Position numbers and translations under genes: made by a program. From Tissierellia bacterium (lineage in GTDB: Bacteria; Bacillota; Clostridia; Tissierellales; Peptoniphilaceae), in NCBI GenBank assembly GCA_030538075.1, contig JAUNUQ010000005.1:28425-92424 (forward strand): 64,000 nt of DNA, written 5' to 3'. The notes under the pieces are model-generated. The model searched no databases. It saw only the letters and a list, made by a program, of their open reading frames with translations, and was not told the DNA's origin. Shown in pieces: positions 2,597 to 24,684 of this stretch (the stretch's first letter is position 1; each line of letters opens with the position of its first letter).

Positions 2597-2597
2597 T

Positions 2598-3436: not shown

Positions 3437-3524
3437 TATAATTAGTTTGCCAACAGATACACCCTGAAAGAAGAATTCTAAGGAAATGAGAGTAAGAAGC
3501 AACGATGAAAGGAGATAGTATTCT

Positions 3525-4250: not shown

Positions 4251-4277
4251 TATTCAGAACATATTTAGGAGGAAATA

Positions 4278-4976: not shown

Positions 4977-5070
4977 AAAAGTCTAAAATCAGGGAGAAAC
5001 AAAGTACGGGCTATTTGTCTATCTTATTTGAGAGAGGCTTATTTTATGATGTGATAAACATTTACGATTA

Positions 5071-5123
5071 ATAAACAGAACCATCAACTGGGTTATGCTT
5101 ACCTTGATGATGGTTCTGTTTAT
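5071..5123 (+). terminator. Intrinsic terminator between converging genes
   Basis: Perfect 16-bp inverted repeat (5071-5086 and 5108-5123) with loop, A/T rich at both ends, between the rightward membrane operon and the leftward DUF924 gene. It may act in both directions. Confidence 0.75.
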
Positions 5124-5177
5124 TATACTGTACTTAATCAAGCAATTGGTAAAAACGGAATTACTTTGTCTTAATTA

Positions 5178-5741: not shown

Positions 5742-5839
5742 CTTGTCCTCCCTTTTAAAGTCTATATTATTGGAATGCATTTATCTTATACCCGAATTCC
5801 CATTTGTTTCACAGCATCCTATTGGTCAGGGTTCTTCCA

Positions 5840-6609: not shown

Positions 6610-6897
6610 ATCAATCTCCTTTCAAATTTGATATGCATTTTTTACCCCCTCGCCAACTGCGTCAATCATATGAATAGAGTGAGAGACAGGAGTATTAATG
6701 GAATGAAATATTTTTCTAGTGAATATTTCAAATTTATTATATTGAGAGATATTTTCTCGGATAGAATCACTTTGCTTTTTGTGTTCTAGAATCGCTAGAA
6801 TTCAACATGCATTGCCCGCAACAAAGGATTGCTAGGTTCTGGATTGCGAGATAGGGCTTGCTGTTATACAATAAAATAAATGGAAAGGGGGATGGAG
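6610..6897. promoter_or_regulatory. Divergent intergenic region
   Basis: 288 bp between the leftward heme lipoprotein and the rightward XRE regulator. It holds a short palindrome TTCTAGAATCGCTAGAA near 6783-6799 and a possible sigma-A -10 (TATACAAT, about 6866-6873) for the regulator gene. No gene seen. Confidence 0.4.
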
Positions 6898-7860
6898 ATG
6901 CTAGCTGAGAATATCAAGAAAATTCGAACAAAAAAGGGTCTGTCCCAGACGGATCTGGCTCAAGAACTCTTTGTGACACGCCAAGCGATCTCCAGCTGGG
7001 AACGTGGGATCAGTGAACCAGATGTGCAGATGCTGCTCAAGCTCTGTGAGATATTCGATGTGCAGCTTGCTGAATTAATCGGAGAGGGCGCGCAGAAGGT
7101 CTATGTCCCTGAGCGTAAGACGAGCCGTATCATGCTGGGACTGCAGTTGGGTCTGGCGATGATCGTCCTTCTCATATTTTTTCAGCCAAATTCTCCAATG
7201 GGAATAGGGGAGCTGATCATGCTGCTCTATTTTCCTTTTATGAGTGGAACCCTCTATCTGATCTTTGGATATATGTTCCGAACGGGCGATCTCAGTTTGT
7301 TGGCGGGATATGATCCGAAGATGAGCTATGTAAAGGAGGTCTTTTTTCGCCTGTTAGAAACCCAAGAGACTTGGATCCACTTCATCAATCTGATTACCTT
7401 TTCGATCAGCCTGCCGGTGCTATGGCTGGGTGATGGGGAGGAGTTAGCCTTGGGAATCTTGTGGATCTCTTATATTCTCAGTTTTATCGTGGGATTTTTT
7501 AAGATCGAAGACAATTATAAAGAGGAACTATATAAGGAGAAAAGGGATCGAGTAAAGGCGGAGTATCAGCAGAGAATAAACATATATTTGCTAGGACTGA
7601 TCCTTTTTCCTGCACTATTCCCAATTGGTTATGGTATGCTCTTTCCAGATCGGGCATCGATTTTGGGATCTGTGGAGATGATACTCATGATTCTGGTCGC
7701 AACCCTTTTGCCCATCTTTTATGTGATCACGGAGTATGATCATCTTCATAAAAGCGTAGACGAAACGGGAAGCTATCAAACGACCAGAATGGGAAAGGGC
7801 ATACTTTTTTTCTGTGTTATGATCAATATCATTTTTGTTTTTCTTCTGATAAAGGGATAG
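6898..7860 (+). CDS. XRE-family regulator with C-terminal membrane domain
   Basis: N-terminal helix-turn-helix of about 60 residues (IRTKKGLSQTDLAQEL, VTRQAISSWERG), followed by five to seven hydrophobic segments. Such membrane-tethered XRE proteins are common in Firmicutes and often sense envelope or membrane state. The ATG at 6898 has AAAGGGGG at good spacing; ATGs at 6880 and 6892 are alternatives. It is 10 bp upstream of a PanE-like reductase gene. Target genes unknown. Confidence 0.85.
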   Translation: MLAENIKKIRTKKGLSQTDLAQELFVTRQAISSWERGISEPDVQMLLKLCEIFDVQLAELIGEGAQKVYVPERKTSRIMLGLQLGLAMIVLLIFFQPNSPMGIGELIMLLYFPFMSGTLYLIFGYMFRTGDLSLLAGYDPKMSYVKEVFFRLLETQETWIHFINLITFSISLPVLWLGDGEELALGILWISYILSFIVGFFKIEDNYKEELYKEKRDRVKAEYQQRINIYLLGLILFPALFPIGYGMLFPDRASILGSVEMILMILVATLLPIFYVITEYDHLHKSVDETGSYQTTRMGKGILFFCVMINIIFVFLLIKG

Positions 7861-7870
7861 GGGTGAAGGG

Positions 7871-8776
7871 ATGGTTAAGATTGGAATACTCGGCGCAGGG
7901 GCCATTGGGTTATTAATAGGGAAGCCCTTGGCAGACAAATATGGCCATGAAAATGTCTTTTATATTGCCGATGAAGAAAGGGCAAAGAAATATAGGGAGC
8001 AGGGTTTTGCGATCAATGGAGAGGAGTTTTATCCTCTGGTGAGAACACCGAAGGAACATACAACCGTGGATCTATTGGTCTTTGCTGTGAAGGCAGTTGC
8101 TCTAAAAGACGCTATGATCGAAGGGGACCCATTTCGATCTGAGAATACGAGGATTCTCTCTTTGATGAATGGGATTTCAAGTGAACGGACGATCGCTGAG
8201 GGATATGGGATCGACCCGCTGCTATTGGCAGTAGGGCAGGAAATGGATGCGACGAAGAAGGGGCGCAGCCTTGCCTACCAGCGACCGGGGAACTTTTCGA
8301 TGGGAGAGAGAGACGGATCTCAGAGTGAACGGCTTAGATGGATGCGTGAGATCTTCGAAGGCGCTGGCATCGATATAAATTCACCTGAGGATATGAATCA
8401 CCATCTGTGGAGCAAGTTTATGCTCAACTGCGGTATCAATCAAGTGCTAGCCGTACATCGTAAGACCTATGGAGCAGCCCAAAGGGGAGGACCTCTGCAT
8501 GATGAATTTGTTGCTGCCATGGAGGAGGTGTGCCAACTGGGCATCGCTGAAGGGGTGAAATTGACGCAGACAGATATCGACTTTTGGGTGGCGGTCATCG
8601 ACCGAATTAACCCTGAGGGAATGCCCTCCATGGCCCAAGATGTGATGAATGGGAGACCGACGGAAGTGGAACTCTTTGCGGGTACGGCGATTCAGCTAGG
8701 GGAGAAGCATGGGATCCCCACTCCGATGAATCAGCATATGTATGATGAGCTAAAAGAACTGGAAAAATCCAGGTAA
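7871..8776 (+). CDS. 2-dehydropantoate 2-reductase (ketopantoate reductase) family protein
   Basis: 301 residues with N-terminal Rossmann motif GILGAGAIG (residues 5-13), the family pattern LLVFAVKA in the NADPH domain, and a C-terminal helical domain with LWSKFMLNCGINQ (catalytic Lys region) and NGRPTEVELFAG. Family members reduce ketopantoate with NADPH in coenzyme A synthesis, but paralogues act on other 2-oxo acids. No other pantothenate genes are nearby, so the substrate is open. RBS AGGGGTGAAGGG precedes the ATG. Confidence 0.85.
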   Translation: MVKIGILGAGAIGLLIGKPLADKYGHENVFYIADEERAKKYREQGFAINGEEFYPLVRTPKEHTTVDLLVFAVKAVALKDAMIEGDPFRSENTRILSLMNGISSERTIAEGYGIDPLLLAVGQEMDATKKGRSLAYQRPGNFSMGERDGSQSERLRWMREIFEGAGIDINSPEDMNHHLWSKFMLNCGINQVLAVHRKTYGAAQRGGPLHDEFVAAMEEVCQLGIAEGVKLTQTDIDFWVAVIDRINPEGMPSMAQDVMNGRPTEVELFAGTAIQLGEKHGIPTPMNQHMYDELKELEKSR

Positions 8777-8877
8777 GATCGGGATTCCGGCGATTCCCCT
8801 TTGATTGAGGGTTAGGACCAAGGGTATATAGTTTTCAAGCCAATTCTAAATATTTGGATAATGCAATAGGAGTGATT

Positions 8878-10053
8878 ATGAAAACTTCAACCTGGAGTCA
8901 ATTTCTGAAGGATGTATTGATCTGTGCCTTGGGGGCTTATGGTGGACCTGAGGCGCATTTTGGCGTATTAACAGACCAACTCGTCATAAAGAAGAAATAC
9001 CTGACCGAAGAGGAGCTCATCGAATTGATCGCTTTAAGTGGCCTCTTACCTGGACCTAGCAGCACCCAGACCATCGTCGCCATAGGCTATAAGATCGGAG
9101 GTCCAGTGCTCGGCTTTCTGACCATGCTGGTCTGGGCGATTTTGCCACTGATCATTATGACGGCACTTTCCTTTCTGTATGGTTTTTTAGCAGTAAACGA
9201 GCTCTCCACAGAGGGACTGCGATTCATAGGACCGATGGCTGTGGGCTTTATCCTGGTGGCGGCCTATCGTATCGGCAAGAAAGTGCTAACAGATCCCTTG
9301 ACCATTGGAATATTCATCGTCTCCGTGGCCTTGACCTATTTTATTCGCTCCTCCCTAGTATTTCCAGCGGTTTTGATACTTGGAGGGTTCGCAGCAATCC
9401 TAGCCAGTGGAGAAAGAGATCTTTGGAATCAAGAGCCCCTTACTCCTCGCTGGATATGGATGGGTTTATTTCTGTTTTTTGCCATCGCAGCTCCCCTATT
9501 GGCCAGAGGGACGGGATCCATTTTGACCATCCTCTTCGAGAAATTCTATCGATATGGCTATCTCGTATTCGGAGGTGGACAGGTCGTCGTACCGATGATG
9601 CATGGTGAATTGGTGGATCTATCCGGCTATATGACGAGCCAAGAATTTTTGACGGGCTATGGTCTCGTACAGGGTGTGCCAGGACCCATGTTTAGCTTTA
9701 GTGCCTATGCCGGGGGCATGGCTGCCAGGGGTTTTGGTCCTGCGGTGCAAATCATAGGGGCGGTGATCAGCGACATTGGAATTTTCTTGCCGGGAATTCT
9801 CCTGATCTATTTTGTCTATCCCCTGTGGGAAGATCTAAAAAAGATCCGCGGCATCAAACTCTCCCTTCGGGGAATCAATGCAGCGGCAGGTGGGATGATC
9901 TCTGCGGCGGCCATACGGCTATTCTTACAGAGTGGAATAACCGCAGAAAATCTATTGGTGATCGCGCTGACGACTTTACTGCTATTTACAAAAAAGGTGC
10001 CCGCTCCCCTGATTGTATTGGCGGTGGTGATTTTGGGCTTTTTAGTCCTCTAA
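8878..10053 (+). CDS. chrA: ChrA-type chromate transporter
   Basis: About 391 residues from the ATG at 8878, preceded by ATAGGAG; an upstream in-frame TTG would add 8 residues without a better RBS. Long-form CHR protein with two homologous halves: half one begins CALGAYGGPEAHFGV and has LLPGPSST; half two has GYGLVQGVPGPMFSF. About ten membrane helices. Family members expel chromate or move related oxyanions; the physiological substrate here is not shown. A HAD-family gene follows after 16 bp. Confidence 0.9.
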   Translation: MKTSTWSQFLKDVLICALGAYGGPEAHFGVLTDQLVIKKKYLTEEELIELIALSGLLPGPSSTQTIVAIGYKIGGPVLGFLTMLVWAILPLIIMTALSFLYGFLAVNELSTEGLRFIGPMAVGFILVAAYRIGKKVLTDPLTIGIFIVSVALTYFIRSSLVFPAVLILGGFAAILASGERDLWNQEPLTPRWIWMGLFLFFAIAAPLLARGTGSILTILFEKFYRYGYLVFGGGQVVVPMMHGELVDLSGYMTSQEFLTGYGLVQGVPGPMFSFSAYAGGMAARGFGPAVQIIGAVISDIGIFLPGILLIYFVYPLWEDLKKIRGIKLSLRGINAAAGGMISAAAIRLFLQSGITAENLLVIALTTLLLFTKKVPAPLIVLAVVILGFLVL

Positions 10054-12080: not shown

Positions 12081-12995
12081 TTGAAGAGAGTACTTATTAT
12101 GATGGTGTTGGTGATAGCCTTATTCATTACGGGTTGTTCCAATACAGTGCCTGCACAAAAAGAGGAGACTACACAAGCTGCCGAAGAAAAGACAGAAGCA
12201 GCTACGACGGAAAAAGAAGAGACGACGGAAGCGGAAAAGACAGAAGCCACAGGCCAAGATAAAAATGTCATTAGGATTGCAACGAATGGAACCCATGCGA
12301 AAATCGTTGAGGAAGCCAAAAAACACATTGAGTCAAATACGGACTACACTGTAGAAATAATTGTGTTTGATGATGTAATCCAGCCGAACATCGCCGTATT
12401 AGAAAGTAGTGCTGATTGTAACTTTTTCCAACATGAACCCTATCTAAAATCCTATGCAAAAGAACACAATGTGGATTTGGCGATGTGGAACGACAAGCCG
12501 ATCTATGCGTTAGAATTTGGAATTTATTCAGATAAAGTAAAGAGCATTGAAGAGCTCAAAGACGGTGCACAAATTGTATTTGGCCGCGATCCTAGTAATC
12601 GAGCGATTGCATTGCACTTCTTAGAAGAGCAAGGGTTGATCAAGTTACAAGAAGGTGTGGAGTTCCCTGAACTACTTGATGTTATCGAAAATCCGAAGAA
12701 TTTACGATTGACTGAGGTGGATATTACAGCTGTTGCGCATTCGATCGAAGATCCAGAGGTAGATGCTATTGTGATCATGGGCTTTTCAATTGCAGGAGCT
12801 GGAAAAGATCCTTCCACAGCGATTGCATTTGGATCGGACGAACTCATCAGTAGATTTGTCAGTGTTTTGGGTGTTAAGGGAGAAGATAAGGATGCAGAAT
12901 GGGGCCAAGCAGTTTATGATGCGTTGACCTCTGATGAACTGAATGCGTATTATGAGGAGCATTACAAGGGGTCAATTCGACCAGTAAAGAAATAA
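12081..12995 (+). CDS. metQ: MetQ/NlpA-family substrate-binding lipoprotein (copy 2)
   Basis: 304 residues from a TTG start that follows AATAGGAGGATCATT. Lipobox FITGC, then a 45-residue spacer of Glu, Thr, Ala and Lys repeats (EETTEAEKTEAT), then the same NlpA domain as copy 1 with NFFQHEPYLKSY and GRDPSNRAIALHFLEEQG. The two domains are clearly a tandem duplication, largely identical by eye, differing mainly in the spacer. It precedes metN by 172 bp and a terminator, so its expression may exceed that of metNI. Confidence 0.88.
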   Translation: MKRVLIMMVLVIALFITGCSNTVPAQKEETTQAAEEKTEAATTEKEETTEAEKTEATGQDKNVIRIATNGTHAKIVEEAKKHIESNTDYTVEIIVFDDVIQPNIAVLESSADCNFFQHEPYLKSYAKEHNVDLAMWNDKPIYALEFGIYSDKVKSIEELKDGAQIVFGRDPSNRAIALHFLEEQGLIKLQEGVEFPELLDVIENPKNLRLTEVDITAVAHSIEDPEVDAIVIMGFSIAGAGKDPSTAIAFGSDELISRFVSVLGVKGEDKDAEWGQAVYDALTSDELNAYYEEHYKGSIRPVKK

Positions 12996-13015
12996 CACCC
13001 AGTAATGTGATTTTG

Positions 13016-13047
13016 AAAAGTGCATCTCAGTGCGTAGATGCACTTTT
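13016..13047 (+). terminator. Intrinsic terminator between metQ copy 2 and metN
   Basis: AAAAGTGCATCT (13016-13027) and AGATGCACTTTT (13036-13047) form a perfect 12-bp stem with an 8-nt loop; the second arm ends in four T residues. Confidence 0.75.
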
Positions 13048-13167
13048 CTGAAAGTAGTAATAGATTCAACGAAGATAGGTATGAAAACTCAGTAGCCTTT
13101 TCCTCGGTTGTCAAGATACTAACGAAAAGGTCTGTAATTAGTACCACTAAAGTACCAAGGAGGAGAA

Positions 13168-14139
13168 ATGATTGAAATAAGAAATCTGAGCAAGTCCTTT
13201 GGAAATCTGCATGTATTGGATGATATTTCTCTGGATATTAAGCGGGGGGATATCCATGGCTTGATTGGACGAAGTGGGGCGGGCAAGTCAACCCTACTTC
13301 GATGTATCAATCGACTTGAGGATTTTCAACAGGGTAGTCTTAAAGTGGACGGCGTGGATATCGGCCATTTGGATTCCCATGAACTCAGAGAAGTGCGAAA
13401 GAATATTGGGATGATCTTCCAGCATTTTTCTCTGATGCAGAGGAAGACTGTGTTTGAGAACATCGCCCTGCCAATGGAATGCTGGGGCTATGATCAGCAG
13501 ACTATAGACAAAAAGGTAAAAGATCTTGCAGAAGTCGTCGACATCACAGAGAAATTGCAATCAAAGCCGAGGGAGCTAAGTGGGGGACAAAAACAGAGGG
13601 TGGCAATTGCCAGAGCCCTTTCCCTTGATTCCAATGTACTATTATCCGATGAGGCCACCTCAGCCCTTGACCCAAAGACGACCGAGTCGATTTTGGATCT
13701 GCTCAAACAGATCAATAAGACCATGGGCATCACAATTGTCGTCGTTGCGCATCAGATGGAAGTAATCAAGAGATTATGCGATAATGTGACGGTTTTAAAT
13801 CATGGGAAGATAGAAATTGAGGGTCCTGTTTCAGAAGTGTTCCTACATAATCCAAATAAGCTGAATCGGATTTTAGGTGGCGGGCAAGATATCGTATTAC
13901 CGGAGACGGGCGTCAATATACGCATTGTGTCCGCAGAAAAGGATCGGTCAAAAAAGATCCTTTCGAGTATGGCAAGGGCATTGGATATCAACTTTGCAGT
14001 GCCCTGGTCGAATATCGAAACTTTTAAGGACAGCAGATATGCCGTGATCAATGTAAATGTGGATGACGAGGATGCGTCAAGAGTGAAAGAATATTTGAAC
14101 CATGTCGATATCTTATGGAGGGAGGCAGGAGATGAATAG
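13168..14139 (+). CDS. metN: Methionine-type ABC transporter ATP-binding protein
   Basis: 323 residues. ATPase domain with Walker A GRSGAGKST (34-42), signature LSGGQKQR, Walker B VLLSDEATSALD and H-loop VAHQM; C-terminal NIL domain (about 245-320), which in MetN binds methionine and inhibits transport. It energises MetI. RBS CAAGGAGGAGAA precedes the ATG; it overlaps metI by 8 bp. Presence of the NIL domain supports methionine-level feedback. Confidence 0.92.
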   Translation: MIEIRNLSKSFGNLHVLDDISLDIKRGDIHGLIGRSGAGKSTLLRCINRLEDFQQGSLKVDGVDIGHLDSHELREVRKNIGMIFQHFSLMQRKTVFENIALPMECWGYDQQTIDKKVKDLAEVVDITEKLQSKPRELSGGQKQRVAIARALSLDSNVLLSDEATSALDPKTTESILDLLKQINKTMGITIVVVAHQMEVIKRLCDNVTVLNHGKIEIEGPVSEVFLHNPNKLNRILGGGQDIVLPETGVNIRIVSAEKDRSKKILSSMARALDINFAVPWSNIETFKDSRYAVINVNVDDEDASRVKEYLNHVDILWREAGDE

Positions 14140-14794
14140 AGATTCTTTTGAATACTTGATAAAAATCGTAGGACCTGCATTTTTGGATACCCTTTTTATG
14201 GTCGTATTTACGACGCTGATCGCCTTTGTATTGGGTTTTGCTGTCGCTGTTGTGCTGATCGTTACTGATAAGGACGGTCTGAAACCGAATCCAATTGTGT
14301 ACAAGACATTGGATGCAATTGTAAATGTCATAAGATCCTTTCCCTTTATCATTCTAATGGTGGCCATCATCCCCTTTACAAGGTTTATCATCGGCAGTTC
14401 TATAGGACGAAAAGCGGCATTGGTGCCATTGATCGTGGCGACCACTCCCTTTATTGCTAGGCTGATCGAGAGCAACCTAAAGGAAGTGGATAAGGGGTTG
14501 ATTGAAGCGGGCAAGTCCTTTGGAGCTTCAACGACGCAGATCGTATTTAAAATCATGGTTAAGGAAGCTATTCCCTCGATTATTTCCTCCCTGACCTTTG
14601 TCGTAATTGCGGTCCTCGGATCGACGGCCATCGCAGGCACGGTCGGGGCGGGGGGATTGGGCTCCGTGGCAATTACTTATGGTTATCAGAGCTTTAATGA
14701 CACCATCATGTATGGAATCGTCGTAATCTTAATCATTCTAGTGCAGATCATTCAGCTATTTGGCAAAAAGATCTATGAGAGATCGATGAAATGA
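14132..14794 (+). CDS. metI: Methionine-type ABC transporter permease
   Basis: 220 residues from the ATG at 14132, preceded by GGGAGGCAGGAG inside metN; the longer reading from 14102 would overlap metN more without an RBS. Five membrane helices, and the BPD_transp_1 EAA-type loop around residues 135-155 (GLIEAGKSFGASTTQI). C-terminal GTVGAGGLGSVAITYGYQ is typical of MetI. Works with MetN and the lipoproteins. The next gene, a methyltransferase-like protein, begins 14 bp later and is probably in the same transcript. Confidence 0.92.
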   Translation: MNRDSFEYLIKIVGPAFLDTLFMVVFTTLIAFVLGFAVAVVLIVTDKDGLKPNPIVYKTLDAIVNVIRSFPFIILMVAIIPFTRFIIGSSIGRKAALVPLIVATTPFIARLIESNLKEVDKGLIEAGKSFGASTTQIVFKIMVKEAIPSIISSLTFVVIAVLGSTAIAGTVGAGGLGSVAITYGYQSFNDTIMYGIVVILIILVQIIQLFGKKIYERSMK

Positions 14795-14808
14795 GATAGG
14801 AGACAAAA

Positions 14809-15921
14809 ATGGATTTTGTAGAATTAAAACGAGAATTCGATAAACAAAAACCAGAGATGAAGCCGAATGAGCGCTTTGATGCATATCTTAAAGGCGAAGA
14901 GGTAGATTTTTTACCATTTGATTTAAATGGAAGCAATCTGAGTGTAGTGGATAATCTGGGATACACGACGACCCAGATGGCTAAGGATTCTGACGTGCTT
15001 TTCCAAGTGGTCGACTTTAAAAGGGATGTATTAGGGATCTATGATGAATTAATTGGTCTCATTATGCACAATCTGATGGGTTCCGAGACCGTCACGCAGG
15101 AACATGGAACCACGTATATTACCTCCCACGTGCTAAAAGATTATAAGGACTTTGATTCTCTGCCCAGACTAGACCCTGAGACGAATCCCATGGTGCAGGG
15201 TTTGATCGAATATGCCGAGAGGATAAAAGAGAAATACCCCGATACTGAGATTCGTCTGTTTTCGAATGGGCCATGGTCAACCGCAGGTAAGATACGTGCC
15301 ATTGAAGATCTATTAAGGGACACTAGACGGCATAAGGACGAGTTGATCGCCTTGCTTCGATTGGGGATGGAGACAAATCTCCGGTTTATGGAGTATTTTT
15401 GTAGTCGATTTGGACCTTGTAGGTCCTTGATGATGGATCCGGTGACCTGCCTCAATCTATTGTCCAAAAAACAATTTGATGAATTGTCGTACCCCTACTT
15501 AAAAGAGTATATAGCAGGGGTTTACAAGGTGACGGGATATCGCCCAGGTCTTCATATCTGTGGCTTGACTAAGGGGCTTTGGAAAGACTTAGCCACCTTA
15601 GATATTGAATATTTCAGTGTAGATAATAGTGAGAGCATCGTGGAATTAAAAGAAATCATTGGCATGGAAAAAATGATCAGCGGTAATATCCCACCAGTAA
15701 CCGTGATGCGAGATGGAAGCACCGACGATGTCGTCAACTGTGTACGGGATACGATTCGAGCGGTCGCGGACAATCCAAATGGATTTCTGATCGATGTAGG
15801 TTGTCAATTACCACTCAGGGTCCCTATGGAAAATCTATATGCTTATGTATATGCTATTCGTAAATATGGAGCTAGAGCAAAGATGGGCCAGATGCCAAAA
15901 GGGGCTTGCACGATGGAGTAA
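14809..15921 (+). CDS. MtaA/UroD-superfamily (cobalamin-type) methyltransferase
   Basis: 370 residues with the uroporphyrinogen decarboxylase fold pattern. It carries the zinc triad of the methyltransferase branch: His249 and Cys251 (GLHICG) and Cys332 (DVGCQLP), which true URO-D lacks. MtaA-type enzymes move methyl groups between a corrinoid protein and a thiol; related proteins (CmuA, MetE C-domain) share the site. It directly follows metI, suggesting that the imported compound is a methyl donor or acceptor. No corrinoid protein gene is in the window. The exact partner is unknown. Confidence 0.82.
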   Translation: MDFVELKREFDKQKPEMKPNERFDAYLKGEEVDFLPFDLNGSNLSVVDNLGYTTTQMAKDSDVLFQVVDFKRDVLGIYDELIGLIMHNLMGSETVTQEHGTTYITSHVLKDYKDFDSLPRLDPETNPMVQGLIEYAERIKEKYPDTEIRLFSNGPWSTAGKIRAIEDLLRDTRRHKDELIALLRLGMETNLRFMEYFCSRFGPCRSLMMDPVTCLNLLSKKQFDELSYPYLKEYIAGVYKVTGYRPGLHICGLTKGLWKDLATLDIEYFSVDNSESIVELKEIIGMEKMISGNIPPVTVMRDGSTDDVVNCVRDTIRAVADNPNGFLIDVGCQLPLRVPMENLYAYVYAIRKYGARAKMGQMPKGACTME

Positions 15922-16027
15922 TGCTCCAAGAGTTGCCCTATGCTACGAGTAAGGACAATACTAGAATAAGCAAGAATATACACTTGGAAAAATGAGGGGA
16001 GAAAAATCTCTAACAAGGGGGTATTAT

Positions 16028-17047
16028 ATGACGATTAAAAAGAGAGTTCCTGTAAATTTGTCTGTTGGTGGGATTATGTATAATGCTTTTTACACGGGGC
16101 AGTATACAGCAGATTTGTACCTAGACCCACAAAGACAGTATAATACAGCGCTGTGGACTTGTGAAGCAGTTGGAACAGATGATTCTCCAGGATACGGAAT
16201 ACAGAATAGTACCCTTTGGGATTTCGGTGGTGAGTTAGTTTTCAGTAGAAAAGAGAAGGTCACTTATTCTATGGGAAAAGAACTTATTGTTCAGACCCCT
16301 GATGATATTGAAAAACTAAAGTTACCGAATTTAGAGACGGCACCAGCCTTCCAGTATGAAATTCAATTTAATGATATTCAGATCGCAAATGGAAAGAAAG
16401 TTGTCTGCCAGGCTGGTTCGATGCTGGAACATATGCAGCAATTAGCAGGTACAAAGAATGTACTGCGTTGGCTTGTTAAGCATCCTGAACAGATGCATGT
16501 GTTTTATCGAAAAATTACGGACTACCTCTGTGCTAAGATTGACTATAAGATAGAACGATATGGTGCTTCGAATCTGTCTTTGATGGGAACATATCAATTA
16601 GACAACGACATGATGATCTCTAGGAAGATCTTTGAGAAGATGAGTTTGCCCTATATCATCGAAATTCATGATCGATTTGTAGACGCAGGCATTTGTGGTT
16701 GGTTGATCCACCTATGTGGTGATCACCGTAAATCACTACATTATTGGCTGGAAGAGATACGAATTCCGAAGCATACCGCTTTTTGGATCGGGACAGAAAT
16801 GGATATCGAGAAGACGGCGAAGTTGATCGGAGATCAACATGCGATTTCTGGAAATCTGGCGAATACCTTGATACAAACAGGCTCACCTCAGGAATTGTAT
16901 GATGAGACGAAAGAACTGGTGTTAAAGATGAAACACCATGCCGGTGGTTTTATACTTCGCCCAGACTGTTCTCTGACAGTGAAAGCTCCACCTGCAAATC
17001 TCTATGCAATTGTTAAAGCTTGTAGGGAATTCGGAGATTTTGAATAG
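16028..17047 (+). CDS. MtaA/UroD-superfamily methyltransferase, second paralogue
   Basis: 339 residues from the ATG at 16028, preceded by AACAAGGGGGTATTAT; an upstream in-frame ATG at 15992 lacks an RBS. Zinc triad His228/Cys230 (IHLCGDH) and Cys314 (RPDCSL) is present. Only distantly similar to the previous protein. Located 106 bp after it, probably same transcript or own promoter. Likely role in corrinoid- or thiol-linked methyl transfer, substrate unknown. Confidence 0.78.
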   Translation: MTIKKRVPVNLSVGGIMYNAFYTGQYTADLYLDPQRQYNTALWTCEAVGTDDSPGYGIQNSTLWDFGGELVFSRKEKVTYSMGKELIVQTPDDIEKLKLPNLETAPAFQYEIQFNDIQIANGKKVVCQAGSMLEHMQQLAGTKNVLRWLVKHPEQMHVFYRKITDYLCAKIDYKIERYGASNLSLMGTYQLDNDMMISRKIFEKMSLPYIIEIHDRFVDAGICGWLIHLCGDHRKSLHYWLEEIRIPKHTAFWIGTEMDIEKTAKLIGDQHAISGNLANTLIQTGSPQELYDETKELVLKMKHHAGGFILRPDCSLTVKAPPANLYAIVKACREFGDFE

Positions 17048-17898: not shown

Positions 17899-18247
17899 CC
17901 TATCCCCCTTTCGTGATCATTCGATCGGTCCATGTCATGCAATATCCCTATCTTGATTATATTCGAATAGCAGATGAAAGGGAAGTTTCTCCTTCGATCA
18001 ACGTGTATAAGAATCGATCCATATCAAAATCGGCATAGTGAAGGATTTTTTATAATGATGGAGATGAGCATACAGTACTTCTATGCTACGCAGTACTCTG
18101 TATCAAACAGGGGACAAATATGCCTAAGCATAAGAAAAGCTAATGATAGAACAAAATGCATAAGGAGAACTTTGTGTACTTCAAACCCTATTCGTGATAA
18201 TCTTAAAACGATTTTAAGGCAGTGAATAGAAGAAAATGGAGGAATGT
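17899..18247. other. Divergent intergenic region, no gene seen
   Basis: 349 bp between the racemase and the first DUF169 gene. It contains a repeated AGTAC (CAGTACTTCTATGCTACGC, then AGTACT, about 18073-18097) of unknown use. I see no riboswitch or credible small gene. Confidence 0.4.
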
Positions 18248-19054
18248 ATGGATATTAAGCAAAGTGTCGATCTGATTGAAGGTTATTTGGACCTAGACCG
18301 AAAGCCGGTAGGCATCAAGTTCTTCTTTAACAAAGAGGATTTTATGAACTTTGAGGTAGACCAAAGAGACCGTAAAGTGACGTATTGTAATTCCGTGCAG
18401 CTTGCCAGTAAGGGCGCCTGCATGAAGCTGACAAAAGAAAACCAGGGTTGCCCCAACGGAGCATTCGCATTGAACTTTGTCGATGTCCCACCTCCAATCG
18501 CAAGTGGCCAAGGACGTTTCAACAAGGGCATGTACAAAAATGTGGAAACCTCTAAGAGTATCAATGATGATATGCTCTTCATGAAGGATAGAGTCTATGG
18601 AATCGCCGTAATGCCTTTGGAAGCCTTTCAGGAAGAACCAGATGTCGTCATCGTCGTCAGCAAATCCTATAATATCATGCGATTGATTCAAGGTCATGGC
18701 TATATGAATGGCTATACCAACAATCTGAGAACCGTTGGGCTACAAGCCGTATGTCAAGACCTGACCACCTACCCATACAACACTGGGGATATCAACATTT
18801 CCCTTCTCTGTCCAGGAACTCGTTTGGTTGCCGATTGGGAGTTGGATGAAATTGGAATTGGCATTCCCTTTGCGAAATGGTATGAGACAGTCGAGGGGGT
18901 TAAACAGACGACCAATCCATTCGAACGAGATGCTAAGAAGAAGGGCATTGAAGAGCGTCTAAATGCGAAAGGCTTGGATACGAGCGAACTGAAATTCAGC
19001 AGCAACTATGATGATGGCTCCTATATTGGTGGGCCCGTTGAAATAGAAGAATAG
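18248..19054 (+). CDS. DUF169-family protein (copy 1)
   Basis: 268 residues from the ATG at 18248, which follows ATGGAGGAATGT; the longer start at 18236 would include this ribosome site. Seen: DRKPVGIKFFF near the N-terminus, VTYCNSVQLASKGAC, ENQGCPNG, and SLLCPGTR. Cysteines at 47, 58, 68, 169 and 188; four recur in the second copy at 49964. Family function unknown. The conserved Cys hint at metal or cluster binding (inference). It lies just upstream of the cobalamin-riboswitch operon. Confidence 0.85.
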   Translation: MDIKQSVDLIEGYLDLDRKPVGIKFFFNKEDFMNFEVDQRDRKVTYCNSVQLASKGACMKLTKENQGCPNGAFALNFVDVPPPIASGQGRFNKGMYKNVETSKSINDDMLFMKDRVYGIAVMPLEAFQEEPDVVIVVSKSYNIMRLIQGHGYMNGYTNNLRTVGLQAVCQDLTTYPYNTGDINISLLCPGTRLVADWELDEIGIGIPFAKWYETVEGVKQTTNPFERDAKKKGIEERLNAKGLDTSELKFSSNYDDGSYIGGPVEIEE

Positions 19055-19224
19055 AAGAAAGAGTTTAGGATATGATCGCCATCGCGTCGCTGGATGGAGA
19101 TAAATATCCGGTGGAAAATCCAAGGGCCCTCTGCGATAGTAGAGGGCTCTCAAACTCTTTACGGGTACCACAGATGGATGCAATATCTAGCGAGGGAAAC
19201 CATTTGCATTGCATTCTGGTATAT

Positions 19225-19395
19225 GTTAAGATGAACACAATACAATAGACATTCGGAGCAGGGAATCCGGTGAAAAACCGGAGCAGTCTTACCTCTACTG
19301 TAAATGACGACGAGTGGGAGAAATACCATTGCGAAAGCGAGAAGGTTCCCATAAGGAGGACTCATGAGCCAGGATATCTGACCGGATGGCACAGA
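19225..19395 (+). ncRNA. Cobalamin (adenosylcobalamin-class) riboswitch
   Basis: Contains conserved blocks of the class in order: GGGAATCCGGTGAAAAACCGG (core stem, from 19261; the first 20 bases are the diagnostic part), CTGTAAATGACGACG, then AGAAGGTTCCC and the B12 box GAGCCAGGATATCTGACC (about 19366-19383). Edges are approximate. It controls the Opp/Nik-type importer starting at 19580. A weak AT-rich hairpin (19400-19424, followed by CTATTTTT) and an RBS-sequestering hairpin (19525-19576) lie downstream and probably form the expression platform. Confidence 0.9.
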
Positions 19396-19524
19396 CGAAT
19401 TAAATTCTTAGGTGGAGAATTTAACTATTTTTGTACCGTTTTTTGGTAATGCGGATTGTGGGACGAGACCATTGGGGAGTTATCCTTCACTACCCCTCGA
19501 CTTGTCGTATAATAACCAAAAATT

Positions 19525-19576
19525 GCAACCTCCTGGAAATTCAATTCGGCTGGAATTGTAAATTTGCAGGAGGTTT
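19525..19576 (+). promoter_or_regulatory. RBS-sequestering hairpin downstream of the riboswitch
   Basis: AACCTCCTG (19527-19535) pairs with CAGGAGGTT (19567-19575), which contains the Shine-Dalgarno for the gene at 19580. An inner CAATTC/GAATTG stem extends it. Six T residues follow, so the same hairpin could also act as terminator. Confidence 0.75.
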
Positions 19577-19579
19577 TTT

Positions 19580-21313
19580 ATGAAGAGATGGGCCATGGGC
19601 ATCCTAGTGATCATGTTATTGCTGTCGCTAATCGGATGTAGTACAAGCGCGGTTCCAGCCGAAGAGCAGTTGGACCAAAAGACAGAAGAGGCGAAGACGA
19701 AAGGGCCTGCCACAAGGGAAGATCAATCAAAGAAAACAGAAGAGAGTGATGGTCATGTCGAGAACTTGATCATCGGCACTGGAGCAGAGAACAATATCTT
19801 TAACAGTCAAGTCCAGAGCGATGCCTTTGGAAGAATGAACTACAATGGCCTAACGCAGGGGAACTTCGTCTATGTCGATGAGAATAATGACCTACAGCCC
19901 TATTTCTTCCGGAGCTTTGAAATCTCAGAGGATGGGACAAAGCTGGTATTCACATTTCCCAAGGATGCCGTCTGGCACGATGGAAAACCAGTATCAAAAG
20001 AGGATATTTCCTTCACCTTTGAGTATATGAGAGATGTGAAAAAGGTAGGGTCTCTAAAGAACTTGGTATCCTGTGAATTCACCGGAGAAAATGAAGCCAC
20101 CCTGACCTTCAGCGAACCGGATGCCTATTATTGGCTGAATTCCTCAACGGCGAACACGGCCCATGTCTATCCAAAACATATTTGGGAAGGGGTTGAGGAC
20201 TACCGGGAATACACGGGAGAAGATGGGGCAATTGGCTGCGGTCCCTTTAAATTAGTAAGTAGGGATAAGGATTCTCAAACCTCAGTATATGAAGCAGTAC
20301 CTGAGAACAATTATGCTGGTGAGATCTCGATCGATCGAGTGACCCTTCAATCTTATTCTGGAGAGGATACCCTGATGATGGCAATGATCAATGGGGAGAT
20401 TGACGCCATGTTCAACTATGCCAATCCCATCGATGCATCTATTATGGAGACGGTATTTGGAAATCCGGACATCGATCCAGGCGAGAGCGAATACTCCGGT
20501 CATTACCAGATTACTTATGGAATGGAGAGAACCCCCTGTGAAGACATTCAATTTCGAAAGGCCGTGCGATCTGCCCTCGATTATGAAATGTTGACAACGG
20601 TCATCAGCGGAGGGTATGGAACGGCACCAGGCGGTGGAGTCATAGCCCCGACGACAAAGGGATTTGATCCATCCATTCCGATATTGAAAACGGACGTAGA
20701 GGAGGCAAATCGACTCTTGGATGAAGGGGGATATCTCGATGCAGATGGTGATGGCTTCCGTGACTATCCAAACGGAGAGCGATTAGATGTCATGGTGACA
20801 CCCCAGTTCTCAAAATCGAGCCAAGAACTGCTAAATCGAATAGCAGATACGATAATGGCATCTCTGGGAAGAGTTGGCATTAAATCACATATTGATGAAG
20901 AGAGTTTAAGAAATAGCGAGGTGTGGGAGCAGAATGTCATCGATGGGAAATATGATATCTCCATAGGCTACACGACTTCGGGAGTCGCGCGATACACGAG
21001 TGCGTTTCGGTACTTTGTCGCCTTGCCCAGATTCGAAGGGGAGCAAACCTGGCTATGGGGCACCTATCATGACGAGGATTTCACCAAGACTTTCTATGAC
21101 ACCTCCCTCGCCACCAATGACGATGACTATATCAATGGGATGAAGAAATTGCAGCAGATGGCGAATGAAGAATGCTTCGCCCAGGCTCTCTGCTGGGAGA
21201 AAGCTTTCTTTCCCTACCGTTTAGACAGATACACTGGATGGAGGAACTATCCCGCTTGGGGCGTCATCAACTCGAGGACCTGGTTTGATCTGAGAAATAT
21301 TTCACCGCAATGA
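19580..21313 (+). CDS. ABC transporter substrate-binding lipoprotein, family 5 (Opp/Dpp/Nik type)
   Basis: 577 residues. Lipobox LIGC, charged spacer to about residue 55, then an SBP_bac_5 domain (GTGAENNIFNSQVQSD, FTFPKDAVWHDGKPVSKEDI, GCGPFKLVSRD, RYTGWRNYPAWGVIN). The RBS is inside the hairpin at 19525-19576, and the gene is governed by the cobalamin riboswitch. Family 5 proteins bind peptides, nickel complexes or other small solutes. A B12-repressed copy most likely serves cobalt or a corrinoid/cobalt-complex (inference). Confidence 0.88.
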   Translation: MKRWAMGILVIMLLLSLIGCSTSAVPAEEQLDQKTEEAKTKGPATREDQSKKTEESDGHVENLIIGTGAENNIFNSQVQSDAFGRMNYNGLTQGNFVYVDENNDLQPYFFRSFEISEDGTKLVFTFPKDAVWHDGKPVSKEDISFTFEYMRDVKKVGSLKNLVSCEFTGENEATLTFSEPDAYYWLNSSTANTAHVYPKHIWEGVEDYREYTGEDGAIGCGPFKLVSRDKDSQTSVYEAVPENNYAGEISIDRVTLQSYSGEDTLMMAMINGEIDAMFNYANPIDASIMETVFGNPDIDPGESEYSGHYQITYGMERTPCEDIQFRKAVRSALDYEMLTTVISGGYGTAPGGGVIAPTTKGFDPSIPILKTDVEEANRLLDEGGYLDADGDGFRDYPNGERLDVMVTPQFSKSSQELLNRIADTIMASLGRVGIKSHIDEESLRNSEVWEQNVIDGKYDISIGYTTSGVARYTSAFRYFVALPRFEGEQTWLWGTYHDEDFTKTFYDTSLATNDDDYINGMKKLQQMANEECFAQALCWEKAFFPYRLDRYTGWRNYPAWGVINSRTWFDLRNISPQ

Positions 21314-22293
21314 GATGGGCAGTAGGATTTTGGAGAAGAATGATCTATTCCATCGTCACAATATTCTTAATTATTTCAATCAGCTTTATGCTGGTTCATC
21401 TGATGCCGGGCGAGCCGATCGTCGGATTGATCGGTCAAGAAGAGTATTATTATCTATTGGACAATAACCCCGAAGAGCTAGAAAGACTTTCCCTAAAATA
21501 CGGCTTAAAGGATCCGTTATTTATGCAGTATGGGAGATATCTGCAGAGCGTAGTAAAACTTGATTTTGGCTACTCCCATATCAATCATGAGGAAGTGGGC
21601 CAGAGGGTCATTAGAGCCTGTTTCAACACCCTGCTGCTATCCATCCCAACTTGGATCATAGGTGGGTTATTGGGTGGGACGCTGGGTCTGATTGCGGGAT
21701 GGAAGCCAAAGGGCATCTTTGATCGAGTGACGACGCCGATCTTTTTGCTGCTGTATACGATCCCTTCAAACTGTATAGCCCTACTGTTATTGATCTTGTT
21801 CTCCTATAAGCTGAGACTATTTCCAATCAATGGAATGGTGTCCCCGGGTACCCATGGTCTCGCACGGACGATGAGCATGCTCCGCCATATGACACTTCCT
21901 CTGTTCATCCTCATACTAATGCGCACAGCAGGTAATTTCATGTTGATGAAAAGCGCCGTATCACAAATTCGAGAGGAGGAGTATATTCTGACAGCCAGCT
22001 CCAAAGGGCTGTCAGAATTCGGCGTGTTGTTCCGGCATGTCCTGCGAAATGCCCTCCTTCCCTATGGCACTTCGATGGCAATCCAAATGGGATTTCTGCT
22101 TTCGGGATCCCTAGTGATCGAAACGGTATTTGGATGGAAGGGAATGGGACAATTGATGCTGGATGCAGTAAACCGGAAGGATTTTCCAACGGCGCAGCTC
22201 TGTTTTCTGCTGTCTGCCATCTGTGTGGTGGGAGCGAATTGGATTGGAGAGTCGATCAATATGATGGTGGATCCGAGGCTGAGAAATGAATAG
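21310..22293 (+). CDS. ABC permease, DppB/NikB type
   Basis: 327 residues; overlaps the binding-protein gene by 4 bp (ATGA). Six membrane helices; N-terminal LVHLMPGEPIVGLIG and the EAA loop (EEEYILTASSKGLSEFGV) are typical of DppB-like permeases. It pairs with the DppC-type protein encoded next. Confidence 0.9.
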   Translation: MRWAVGFWRRMIYSIVTIFLIISISFMLVHLMPGEPIVGLIGQEEYYYLLDNNPEELERLSLKYGLKDPLFMQYGRYLQSVVKLDFGYSHINHEEVGQRVIRACFNTLLLSIPTWIIGGLLGGTLGLIAGWKPKGIFDRVTTPIFLLLYTIPSNCIALLLLILFSYKLRLFPINGMVSPGTHGLARTMSMLRHMTLPLFILILMRTAGNFMLMKSAVSQIREEEYILTASSKGLSEFGVLFRHVLRNALLPYGTSMAIQMGFLLSGSLVIETVFGWKGMGQLMLDAVNRKDFPTAQLCFLLSAICVVGANWIGESINMMVDPRLRNE

Positions 22294-23107
22294 GAAAATA
22301 GTTGGGGCTATCAGGCCAAAGAGCTTCTATCTCGGCATGGTGATCATCGTCCTTGTGATGCTTATCGCAGTATTTGCGCCCTTTATCGCATCCTATGATC
22401 CCCATGAGATGATGATCCCTTATCAAAGGCCCAGTCGAGACCATCTACTGGGCACGAATGACGTTGGACAAGATATTTTTAGCGAACTGATCTATGGGAC
22501 CAGAGCTTCCCTATTTGTAGGTCTCTTCGCAGCATTTATCATCACGGGAATGGGGACCACTCTCGCAGTCTTGTCGGGCTACTACCGGGGCATTACAGAC
22601 CGAATCATTTCCGCTCTGACCAATATCGCGATGGCAATCCCATCACTCCCATTGACAATACTCTTGGTGGCCTTTTTAAAACCGGGGAAATGGAATCTGA
22701 TCCTGGCCTTGAGCCTGACGGGTTGGACGGGAACGGCGAGGATACTTCGGACGAAGACGATGGAGATCGCCGAACAGCCCTTCATAAAAATCGAAAAGAC
22801 CTTGGGAGTCTCGAATTTGGTGATCATGCTCAAGCATATTTTGCCCAATCTGAAAGACATCGTATTGATGCGAGGCGCCATGATGATATCCTCTGTCATG
22901 GTCACAGAGGCGAGCCTCAGCTTTTTGGGTCTCGGAACATATGGAGAGAAATCTTGGGGGAGTATCCTGCGCTATGCCTTTTTCCGAAATAGCATTCTTC
23001 GGCAGTTTACCTGGTGGTATTTACCGCCAATACTATGTATCTCCGTAACCGTATTGGGATTTATGCTAGTGGGCTACTATGGAGCGACCGATGAAAAGAC
23101 AGTTTGA
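22286..23107 (+). CDS. ABC permease, DppC/NikC type
   Basis: 273 residues, overlapping the previous gene by 8 bp. N-terminal helix, then HLLGTNDVGQDIFSELIYG, a hallmark of DppC-like proteins, and the EAA-type loop EIAEQPFIKIEKTLGVSN. Second half of the import channel. Lies in the B12-riboswitch operon. Confidence 0.9.
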   Translation: MNRKIVGAIRPKSFYLGMVIIVLVMLIAVFAPFIASYDPHEMMIPYQRPSRDHLLGTNDVGQDIFSELIYGTRASLFVGLFAAFIITGMGTTLAVLSGYYRGITDRIISALTNIAMAIPSLPLTILLVAFLKPGKWNLILALSLTGWTGTARILRTKTMEIAEQPFIKIEKTLGVSNLVIMLKHILPNLKDIVLMRGAMMISSVMVTEASLSFLGLGTYGEKSWGSILRYAFFRNSILRQFTWWYLPPILCISVTVLGFMLVGYYGATDEKTV

Positions 23108-24032
23108 GCCAATTTTGAGGATAGAGGGTTTGCGTGTGGGCTTTGGCATGGACAAAATCCCTGTACTGCGAGATGTATCTCTCTTAGTCTATCCAAATGA
23201 CAGAATCGGGGTCATCGGGGAAACGGGTAGTGGTAAGAGCGTGCTGCTGCTCAGCCTCTTGCAGCTCCTTCCAGCCAATGCGCAGATCGAAGGATCTGCA
23301 TTCTTTCATGGACTCGATCTCTTGGGACTAAGCCGCAAGACCCTAGATGGAATACGGGGTAACAAGATATCTTATATTGCCCAGGGAAGTGGAAATAGTA
23401 TGAATCCCCTGATCAATGTGGGGGCTCAGGTGGGAGAACCTCTGGTGATCCATCATCAATACACGAAAGCGAAGTCTTTTGACAGGGCGATTGAGCTATT
23501 GAGGCGGTTTAATCTCGGGGATGAGGAGCGACGGGCGAAGATGTACCCCCATAGTTTCAGTGGAGGAATGCGCCAACGGGCGATGATCGCCATGGGCATC
23601 GCCGGAGGGGCAGAACTGCTGTTGGCGGATGAACCGACAAAAGGTCTGGATGTCCAGCGAATAAAAATGGTCGAGGAGACCTTTCGCACACTGGAGGATC
23701 GGGCGTATATCTGTGTCACCCATGACCTGAACTTCGCTCAGAATATCAGTGAAAAACTATTGGTCATGCATTCTTCCTATGTCGTCGAAGAAGGACCGAC
23801 AGAGGAAGTGTTCAATCGTCCCCTTCATCCCTATACGGAATCAATTATCCAGGCCATGCCTGAAAATGGCTGCGTCGTGCTACAGGAGCGTATGGACCAC
23901 TCCATTGTAGAGTCCGGATGCAGTTATCGGAAAAATTGTATTTACGCGATGGACCAATGCATGAAGACGCCTCCGTACTTTAGTATTTCACAGACTCGTA
24001 AAGTGAGGTGCTGGAAATATGCTGAAATGTAA
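23091..24032 (+). CDS. ABC ATP-binding protein, DppD/NikD type
   Basis: 313 residues from the ATG at 23091, which follows ATGGAGCGACCG inside the previous gene; a GTG-type start at 23079 is less likely. Walker A GETGSGKSV, signature FSGGMRQR, Walker B LLLADEPTKGLDV, then the C-terminal Opp-type extension with cysteines (CSYRKNCIYAMDQC), which in relatives can hold an iron-sulfur cluster. Partner of the ATPase encoded next. Confidence 0.9.
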   Translation: MKRQFEPILRIEGLRVGFGMDKIPVLRDVSLLVYPNDRIGVIGETGSGKSVLLLSLLQLLPANAQIEGSAFFHGLDLLGLSRKTLDGIRGNKISYIAQGSGNSMNPLINVGAQVGEPLVIHHQYTKAKSFDRAIELLRRFNLGDEERRAKMYPHSFSGGMRQRAMIAMGIAGGAELLLADEPTKGLDVQRIKMVEETFRTLEDRAYICVTHDLNFAQNISEKLLVMHSSYVVEEGPTEEVFNRPLHPYTESIIQAMPENGCVVLQERMDHSIVESGCSYRKNCIYAMDQCMKTPPYFSISQTRKVRCWKYAEM

Positions 24033-24684
24033 AAATCTGACGAAAGTCTATTCGATCGGTCCCAAAAAGAGATTACAGGCCATAAAAGATGTGAGTTTCT
24101 CCATCGGCGCTGGCGAGACCGTCGGTCTACTCGGAGAAAGTGGCAGCGGGAAATCAACAATTGGACAGATCCTATGCGGACTACTGAAGCCGACAGAGGG
24201 AGAGCTGCTCTTTCAGAATGAGGTTTTGACCTATCCCTTTTCGAAAGAGGTCCGTCCCAAAATTCAGATCCTATTCCAGCATCCAGAGGTCTCCTTCAAT
24301 CCAAAACTGCGGATCATTGATAGCATCAAAGAACCCTACAGACTCTATCTCCACTCCAAAGATCGAAGCCGGATCATAGAGGATATTGAAAGGATGGGGC
24401 TAAGAGCTGAGCATCTTGACCGATATCCCAGAGAGCTCAGCGGAGGCGAGCTACAAAGGCTGGCGCTGGCAAGGGTATTGTCCATCCGGCCCTCCCTGTT
24501 GGTACTCGATGAGCCGACCAGTATGCTGGATGTTCTGAGTCAAGCGCAGATCATGCACCTACTGAAAGCCTATCAGACCAGATGGGGGACTTCCTATTTA
24601 TTTATCACTCACAACCCCCAGTTAGCAGGGTTTTTTTCGGATCAAATCCTCGCAATTCACGAGGGAGAACTGGTAAGGAACTAG
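24019..24684 (+). CDS. ABC ATP-binding protein, DppF/NikE type
   Basis: 221 residues, overlapping the previous gene by 14 bp. Walker A GESGSGKST, signature LSGGELQR, Walker B LLVLDEPTSMLDV, H-loop FITHN. Short for OppF/DppF because it lacks the C-terminal oligopeptide extension, as NikE-like proteins do. Last gene of the importer operon. Confidence 0.9.
   Translation: MLKCKNLTKVYSIGPKKRLQAIKDVSFSIGAGETVGLLGESGSGKSTIGQILCGLLKPTEGELLFQNEVLTYPFSKEVRPKIQILFQHPEVSFNPKLRIIDSIKEPYRLYLHSKDRSRIIEDIERMGLRAEHLDRYPRELSGGELQRLALARVLSIRPSLLVLDEPTSMLDVLSQAQIMHLLKAYQTRWGTSYLFITHNPQLAGFFSDQILAIHEGELVRN

What the first reader, a model, noticed from the sequence alone, without database searches (positions are those of the whole stretch)
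19225..24684. Cobalamin riboswitch controlling a full Opp/Nik-type ABC importer
The conserved core and B12 box are clear, and the only genes downstream are a five-gene peptide/nickel-type system. Usual B12-controlled uptake systems are BtuFCD, Cbi/ECF or Cbt types. This one may import cobalt as a chelate, or a corrinoid fragment or precursor, and would be a new B12-linked use of this transporter class.
Basis: partly seen in the sequence, partly recalled or inferred. Interest (0 to 1): 0.75.

Follow-up and report, generated by a model that had tools for sequence, protein, structure and literature searches.

The report
B12-switched Opp-type importer, likely for corrinoids
An RNA switch of the vitamin-B12-sensing family sits in front of a five-gene importer of the peptide/nickel class in this bacterium and in its closest examined relatives, B12 is predicted to switch the importer off, and its cargo is likely a B12-like ring or a precursor of it, which would be a new job for this transporter class.

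Summary
Confirmed: a cobalamin riboswitch (RF00174, 68.2 bits, cut-off 31.5) at 19201-19399 lies 180 nt before a complete SBP-permease-permease-ATPase-ATPase operon (19580-24684). Of the genome's three riboswitches, the others precede cbiM/N/Q-like and BtuF/BtuC-like genes. The pairing is conserved: five of five close-clade loci held (57% or more SBP identity, window included) have it, and two of seven distant ones. The leader is predicted to be a transcription-terminating OFF switch. The permease falls in a ten-row family (99/99) apart from NikB and DppB; no NCBIfam hit shown reaches cut-off. The idea is not wholly new: B12 riboswitches before NikABCDE-type genes are reported (PMC2667541, PMC9600662). 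The cargo is unproven. I favour a corrinoid or precursor: each of the four close-clade genomes with CbiD has another riboswitch-linked cobalt candidate (CbiM or a Nik-type system), while G1273, without detected ring synthesis, keeps two riboswitch-headed family members. Against this: all four other carriers lack CbiM over cut-off, which fits cobalt, and G1273 is only 95% complete.

The parts
19201..19399 (+). Cobalamin riboswitch aptamer (RF00174)
   Evidence: 68.2 bits against a gathering score of 31.5, E 1e-14, model 1-189; also found in the genome-wide search
19289..19295 (+). L5 loop, which can pair with L13
   Evidence: Read from sequence; 19290-19294 is complementary to 19410-19414 (5 pairs, one G-U); by eye, not tested against shuffles
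19400..19424 (+). P13 hairpin with loop L13 (19409-19415)
   Evidence: 9-of-9 complementary arms 19400-19408/19416-19424; folded
19392..19415 (+). 5' strand of a predicted antiterminator that excludes P13; partner 19529-19552
   Evidence: 24-nt inverted repeat, 75% complementary; antiterminator fold and P13 fold both -43.6 kcal/mol for the transcript 19385-19556; 18 of 500 shuffles pair as well
19527..19575 (+). Predicted terminator hairpin followed by a U tract; its 3' arm holds the Shine-Dalgarno-like sequence
   Evidence: -23.9 kcal/mol, 0 of 60 dinucleotide shuffles as low; arms. The simple consensus scan did not list it (stem with bulges)
19580..21313 (+). Substrate-binding lipoprotein, SBP_bac_5 (577 aa)
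   Evidence: PF00496 7.8e-49; model pLDDT 87.5; SBP5 fold
21310..22293 (+). Permease B (327 aa)
   Evidence: PF00528 and PF19300; ten-row family 99/99
22286..23107 (+). Permease C (273 aa)
   Evidence: PF00528 and PF12911
23079..24032 (+). ATPase D (317 aa)
   Evidence: PF00005 and oligo_HPY PF08352
24019..24684 (+). ATPase F (221 aa)
   Evidence: PF00005

Best explanation
A cobalamin riboswitch stands 180 nt before a five-gene Opp/Nik-class ABC importer operon; corrinoid binding is predicted to trigger transcription termination and so switch the operon off, and the importer likely takes up a corrinoid or corrinoid precursor from outside the cell. Predicted mechanism: when corrinoid is scarce, the strand 19392-19415 pairs with 19529-19552 (antiterminator), the terminator at 19527-19575 cannot form, RNA polymerase reads on and the Shine-Dalgarno sequence is free. 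When corrinoid binds, the L5-L13 contact holds P13 (19400-19424), the antiterminator is lost, and the terminator, which also hides the Shine-Dalgarno sequence, forms. Shown here: the aptamer, the operon, the conservation of the pairing, terminator-like hairpins in the five close-clade leaders, the separate family. Inferred: ligand response, the switching order, and above all the cargo.
For: Riboswitch and operon. Conservation: RF00174 before the SBP in L007, L008, L009 and L019, so five of five close-clade loci with the window; also heading the operons of distant relatives L020 (40%) and L022 (33%). Flanking genes differ between the window, L008 and L009, while L007 and L019 share theirs (by eye). 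Terminator-like hairpins between aptamer and gene in 5 of 5 leaders; shuffles as low: 0, 0, 0, 1 and 0 of 60. Two equal-energy folds in the window. Cargo: G000 already has riboswitches before cbiM/N/Q-like and BtuF/BtuC-like genes. In the CbiD-positive carriers G1274, G1275 and G1276 another Nik/Opp-type system (L066; L060; L058 and L069) has its own riboswitch, so cobalt has another candidate. G1273, with no CbiD and one TP_methylase against six in each of four others, still holds two riboswitch-headed members of this family. None of G1275's three riboswitches showed a BtuFCD-like operon. Distant relatives in three f113 genomes lie near a CobN-like gene (domain tested in G573 only).
Against: CbiM over cut-off is absent from all four other close-clade genomes (G1273-G1276; G1276 has one match below cut-off), three of which have CbiD: that fits a substitute cobalt importer. 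G1273 is 95% complete, and one lost contig could carry a whole cbi operon. G1273, G1274 and G1276 also have BtuF- or BtuC-like genes under riboswitches, so corrinoid uptake has other candidates. None of the solved structures shown (50 rows each) is titled as binding a corrinoid; nickel binder NikZ is at the top. The riboswitch label did not fall on the permease tree as one gain (6 changes, shuffled mean 5.2). Antiterminator pairing is only modestly better than shuffles (window 18, relatives 18, 53, 37 and 42 of 500 as low). The consensus scan listed no terminator in the leader, and it lists a promoter-like site at 19486-19513, downstream of the aptamer, which if real would bypass the switch; the scan found 9 such sites against 9.4 expected by chance.
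Confidence: 0.4

Rival explanations
1. The importer takes up cobalt as a chelate, replacing or backing up CbiMNQO, and B12 represses it because cobalt is only needed when B12 is short.
For: Four of four other close-clade genomes lack CbiM over cut-off, three of them have CbiD. NikABCDE-type members under B12 riboswitches are named as exceptions to nickel specificity (PMC2667541, passages). A CGGC-domain protein follows the SBP in the distant relative L020. NikZ is at the top of the structural comparison, tied with an SBP5 of unknown ligand.
Against: G000 already has CbiM under its own riboswitch. G1274, G1275 and G1276 each have a further riboswitch-headed Nik/Opp-type system (L060 scores 385 of 393 bits on NikA although cut short, the L066 permease passes Opp2B). 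G1273 has no detected ring synthesis but two family members. The NikA His416 position is Glu in the close clade, with no His within 6 columns, although the alignment is gapped there. No background rate of CbiM loss was measured.
Confidence: 0.3
2. The importer takes up peptides (for example as a methionine source) when B12-dependent methionine synthesis fails, much as B12-independent isozymes are repressed by B12 riboswitches.
For: Class membership (SBP_bac_5, OppC_N, oligo_HPY); Opp4A, Opp4B and Opp4C are the best NCBIfam hits of the SBP and the permeases, though far below cut-off. Isozyme control by B12 riboswitches is described (PMC3766115, passages).
Against: The position of DppA Asp408 (its role as amino-terminus anchor is recalled) is Ser in the close clade. 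No peptide-transporter equivalog cut-off is reached. MetE/MetH content was not tested.
Confidence: 0.2
3. The riboswitch is present but the operon has kept an unrelated nutrient role and B12 control is incidental.
For: Five of seven distant relatives lack the riboswitch in the stretch fetched; the operon is rare (1 of 130 genomes of the host family, itself).
Against: Five of five close-clade loci have it; it also heads differently ordered operons in L020 and L022.
Confidence: 0.1

Closest known systems
NikABCDE-family genes preceded by B12 riboswitches (Clostridium tetani, Desulfitobacterium hafniense; PMC2667541) and the Sporomusa ovata nikA riboswitch (PMC9600662)
   Same: Cobalamin riboswitch before a peptide/nickel-class importer
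   Different: The window SBP scores 72 bits on TIGR02294 (cut-off 393) and lacks the NikA His416. Whether those published systems belong to this clade was not tested; their sequences were not fetched
BtuFCD
   Same: B12-riboswitch control (the host's BtuF/BtuC-like genes have it), proposed corrinoid cargo
   Different: Different ABC importer class: SBP_bac_5 with BPD_transp_1 permeases and two ATPases; BtuF/BtuC domain make-up is recalled
CbiMNQO
   Same: B12-riboswitch control; cobalt is a rival cargo
   Different: ECF-type without a binding protein (recalled); a separate cbiM/N/Q-like set with its own riboswitch exists in this genome
Dpp/Opp importers and SBP5 proteins such as DppA, HbpA2 and SapA
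   Different: No equivalog cut-off reached; riboswitch control

Membership tests
Cobalamin riboswitch RF00174 | Rfam gathering score 31.5 bits | tested here: met
   68.2 bits, full length
Cobalamin riboswitch RF00174 | P13 hairpin whose loop can pair with L5 | tested here: inconclusive
   P13 arms 9 of 9 complementary; L5-L13 five pairs by eye only, no control
Cobalamin riboswitch RF00174 | Expression changes with corrinoid | not testable with these tools
   Needs a reporter assay
Opp/Nik-class ABC importer | SBP_bac_5, two BPD_transp_1 permeases, two ABC_tran ATPases side by side | tested here: met
   All over Pfam cut-offs
NikABCDE nickel importer | NCBIfam cut-offs of NikA, NikB, NikC, NikD, NikE (TIGR02294, 02789, 02790, 02770, 02769) | tested here: not met
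   72.0 of 393, 167.9 of 447, 162.8 of 358.45, 159.7 of 318.7 and 202 of 332.55 bits
NikABCDE nickel importer | His416 of NikA | tested here: not met
   Glu in the window SBP and the four close-clade loci, no His within 6 columns; the alignment is gapped there. That His416 is essential is from the title of PDB 3qim
DppA dipeptide importer | NF043070 cut-off 1005 bits | tested here: not met
   46.1 bits; the Asp408 position is Ser
Opp4 oligopeptide importer | NF045467, NF045472 and NF045476 cut-offs 650, 450 and 350 bits | tested here: not met
   101.9, 213.7 and 218.0 bits
BtuFCD | Peripla_BP_2 SBP and FecCD-type permease (recalled) | tested here: not met
   The SBP shows SBP_bac_5 and the permeases show BPD_transp_1 with BPD_transp_1_N or OppC_N; no Peripla_BP_2 or FecCD match
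Corrinoid importer (functional claim) | SBP binds a corrinoid | not testable with these tools
   Needs purified protein

The most novel reading that the evidence does not exclude
This is a new class of corrinoid importer: an Opp/Nik-fold ABC system under cobalamin-riboswitch control, carried by B12 makers and by a likely B12 auxotroph alike, and working beside or in place of BtuFCD.
Probability: 0.35. Interest if true: 0.8.

Novelty: new variant of a known kind. Interest (0 to 1): 0.5.

Why it matters
Corrinoid uptake in Gram-positive bacteria is attributed mainly to BtuFCD and ECF systems (general knowledge, recalled). If this clade carries corrinoids or cobalt chelates, it adds an uptake route that annotation files as peptide/nickel transport, and B12 auxotrophy predictions made from genomes would need revision. 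In five genomes that hold family members, 10 of the 30 riboswitch loci returned (of 35 rows) head an Opp/Nik-type system, six of them of this family and four of other types, so the question is wider than one operon.

Tried and rejected
Tried without result: NCBIfam naming of the five genes (no cut-off reached among the hits shown; for the two ATPases only the best 25 of 175 and of 189 hits were shown). Fold searches do not tell the cargo: NikZ, NikA, DppA, HbpA2, chitin- and mannan-binding SBPs all match. A Cys in 'GCGP' as a metal ligand was dropped because L020, L025 and P0032 have another residue there. I first took the distant relatives to lack the riboswitch (short flanks); wider flanks showed it at the operon start in two of them. 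'CbiM is missing, so it is cobalt' was dropped as sole argument once other riboswitch-headed Nik/Opp-type systems appeared. The tool's consensus scan listed no terminator in the leader and a chance-level promoter-like site inside it.

Literature: eight full-text searches were answered; two searches found no paper, three that I did not open, and searches gave lists. Passages (not whole texts) were seen of PMC3766115, PMC2667541, PMC4285132, PMC7689651, PMC11170127, PMC9600662 and PMC545781. PMC4285132 describes a riboswitch-controlled Dehalobacter operon with BtuCDE/FepBCD-like transporters, CbiZ and CobN; PMC11170127 reports for Catenibacillus (Lachnospiraceae) a single riboswitch, before btuCDF, so this operon is not general there. 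Three papers are not held.

Rows left out of counts: one search listed 35 riboswitch rows in five genomes (one below cut-off), 30 with a locus; only these 30 were classified (10 Opp/Nik-type operons, 8 with BtuF/BtuC-like or Peripla_BP_2 genes, 3 CbiK-like, 1 CbiM, 1 CbiD, 7 other or unclear; my tally, mostly by BLAST against a small set of my own). One of G1273's eight and three of G1276's ten riboswitches were thus not classified. One search found 222 homologous proteins among 7996 scored candidates, 120 listed; 31 of these went into alignment A1. Their DNA context is unknown, so the five of five counts only loci held.
Full report
OBSERVATION. cmscan finds one cobalamin riboswitch in the window, 19201-19399 (+), 68.2 bits, and a tRNA at 24932. 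Between them lie five tightly packed genes: an SBP_bac_5 lipoprotein, two BPD_transp_1 permeases and two ABC ATPases. The genome (2.5 Mb, 65 contigs) has three such riboswitches. The other two precede cbiM/N/Q-like and BtuF/BtuC-like genes (genes; CbiM and CbiQ over NCBIfam cut-offs, BtuF and BtuC below theirs). The genome also holds an anaerobic B12 gene cluster (CbiK-CbiL fusion and CbiC matches, CbiD, further cbi-like genes by eye) and CobS, with no riboswitch on the two stretches fetched. So all three riboswitches found in this genome lie before transporter genes.

CONSERVATION. A pattern scan of the 84,980-species collection for close relatives of the SBP gave three confirmed loci. All three carry RF00174 just upstream of the SBP (L007 120, L008 94, L009 114 bits) and the same five genes in the same order (by eye). 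With the window this is five of five held loci at 57% or more SBP identity. Of seven more distant relatives (33-40% identity to whichever family member was the query), L020 and L022 have a riboswitch at the head of differently ordered operons, while L021, L023, L024, L025 and L033 have none at the gathering score in the stretch fetched. The family is rare: 1 of 130 genomes in the host's family (itself), 2 of 391 in the class sample and 4 of 398 in the phylum sample, the host being one of the matches in both, 2 of 397 and 1 of 299 in family f28. Only 3 to 10 candidates per genome were scored and strict E-value limits were set, so these are lower bounds.

SWITCH MECHANISM (predicted). Between aptamer and gene the window has P13 (19400-19424), whose loop can pair with L5 (by eye), and a hairpin at 19527-19575 that ends in a U tract and contains the Shine-Dalgarno-like sequence. 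Its energy is -23.9 kcal/mol, 0 of 60 dinucleotide shuffles as low; the four relatives have such hairpins too (0, 0, 1 and 0 of 60). The simple terminator scan did not list the window hairpin. The 3' end of the aptamer plus the P13 5' arm (19392-19415) is 75% complementary over 24 nt to 19529-19552, the 5' side of the terminator. For the transcript 19385-19556 the antiterminator fold and the P13 fold have equal energy, -43.6 kcal/mol. This is what a ligand-tipped switch would look like. The duplex test is modest: 18 of 500 shuffles as low in the window, and 18, 53, 37 and 42 of 500 in the relatives. A promoter-like site at 19486-19513 would bypass the switch if real, but such sites are at chance level (9 found, 9.4 expected).

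WHICH CARGO. CbiD is found in 10 of 11 genomes tested, missing only in G1273. CbiM over cut-off is found in 7 of 11 and is missing from G1273, G1274, G1275 and G1276, that is from all four other carriers of the close clade. Taken alone this favours cobalt. The riboswitches of five genomes were then listed (35 rows, 30 with loci) and their downstream genes read. G1274, G1275 and G1276 each have a further riboswitch-headed Nik/Opp-type system outside this family (L066; L060; L058 and L069). L060 reaches 385 of the 393-bit NikA cut-off although truncated, and the L066 permease passes the Opp2B nickel cut-off; L058 and L069 are SBP_bac_5 proteins well below the NikA cut-offs. So each close-clade genome with CbiD has another riboswitch-linked cobalt candidate: CbiM in G000, Nik/Opp-type in the other three. 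G1273 has one TP_methylase against six in each of the four others, so it likely cannot build the ring, yet it keeps two riboswitch-headed members of this family (L019/L051 and L020/L063). A cargo useful to both makers and non-makers points to a corrinoid or precursor. Distant relatives in the f113 genomes G573, G674 and G722 stand near a CobN-like gene, a MotA/ExbB-like gene and a methyltransferase gene (domains tested in L023/G573; similar genes by eye in L024 and L025). I therefore commit to corrinoid or precursor, at 0.4, with cobalt chelate close behind at 0.3. The numbers are small, G1273 is 95% complete and one of its eight riboswitches was not looked at, other carriers have BtuF/BtuC-like genes for corrinoids, and no background rate was measured.

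KNOWN OR NEW. Comparative genomics assigns B12-riboswitch genes to B12 synthesis, B12 and precursor transport, cobalt transport and isozymes (PMC3766115, passages). Zhang et al. 2009 note NikABCDE-family members in C. tetani and D. hafniense preceded by B12 riboswitches (PMC2667541, passages). Kennedy et al. 2022 used an S. ovata nikA riboswitch (PMC9600662, passages). The searches did not show me a report of this subfamily or of an Opp-type corrinoid importer; many listed papers were not opened, and the library lacks most subscription journals. Hence: a new variant of a known kind, with a testable and possibly surprising cargo.

Noticed in passing
L078 (G1276:C1:6000-18000), 1206-8943: A riboswitch-headed Nik/Opp-type operon (L069) is followed directly by two nitrogenase-component-1-like genes (PF00148, 1e-37 and 1.6e-71). 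A B12-switched importer beside a nitrogenase-like pair is unexplained; one literature search for the pairing found nothing.
   Followed up: partly
L053 393-1457 (-), L059 1916-2800 (+), L062 351-1418 (-): CbiK-like cobalt chelatases with an apparent N-terminal signal sequence (by eye), first large gene after a cobalamin riboswitch in three genomes; one of them, G1273, has no detected ring synthesis.
   Followed up: partly
L023 4789-13013 (-): A distant family member near a 470-aa CobN-like piece, MotA/ExbB-like, methyltransferase and NirJ/AhbD-like radical SAM genes; the SBP carries a Cu_amine_oxidN1 domain. Similar genes are seen by eye in L024 and L025.
   Followed up: partly
L020 8172-8594 (-); L074 970-1440 (-): CGGC-domain proteins sit in riboswitch-headed operons in two genomes, once after a member of this family and once before a Peripla_BP_2 protein.
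   Followed up: no
window 18236-19054 and 49964-50692: Two DUF169 (COG2043) proteins: one just upstream of the riboswitch, one after an ECF-like cluster whose first gene matches PF09819 'ABC_cobalt' (47222-47776).
   Followed up: no
window 42036-46796: A second Opp/Nik-like SBP (cut-offs not met) with permease-like and ATPase-like genes behind it (by eye), without a riboswitch.
   Followed up: no
window 12081-17047: MetQ-like lipoprotein (below cut-off) and ABC genes followed by two URO-D/MtaA-like methyltransferase genes, a neighbourhood of the corrinoid methyl-transfer kind upstream of the finding.
   Followed up: no
L055 (G1275:C24:3316-3500): A cobalamin riboswitch match (89.8 bits) whose first large same-strand gene looks like a UDP-glucose epimerase (by eye); unexplained.
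   Followed up: no
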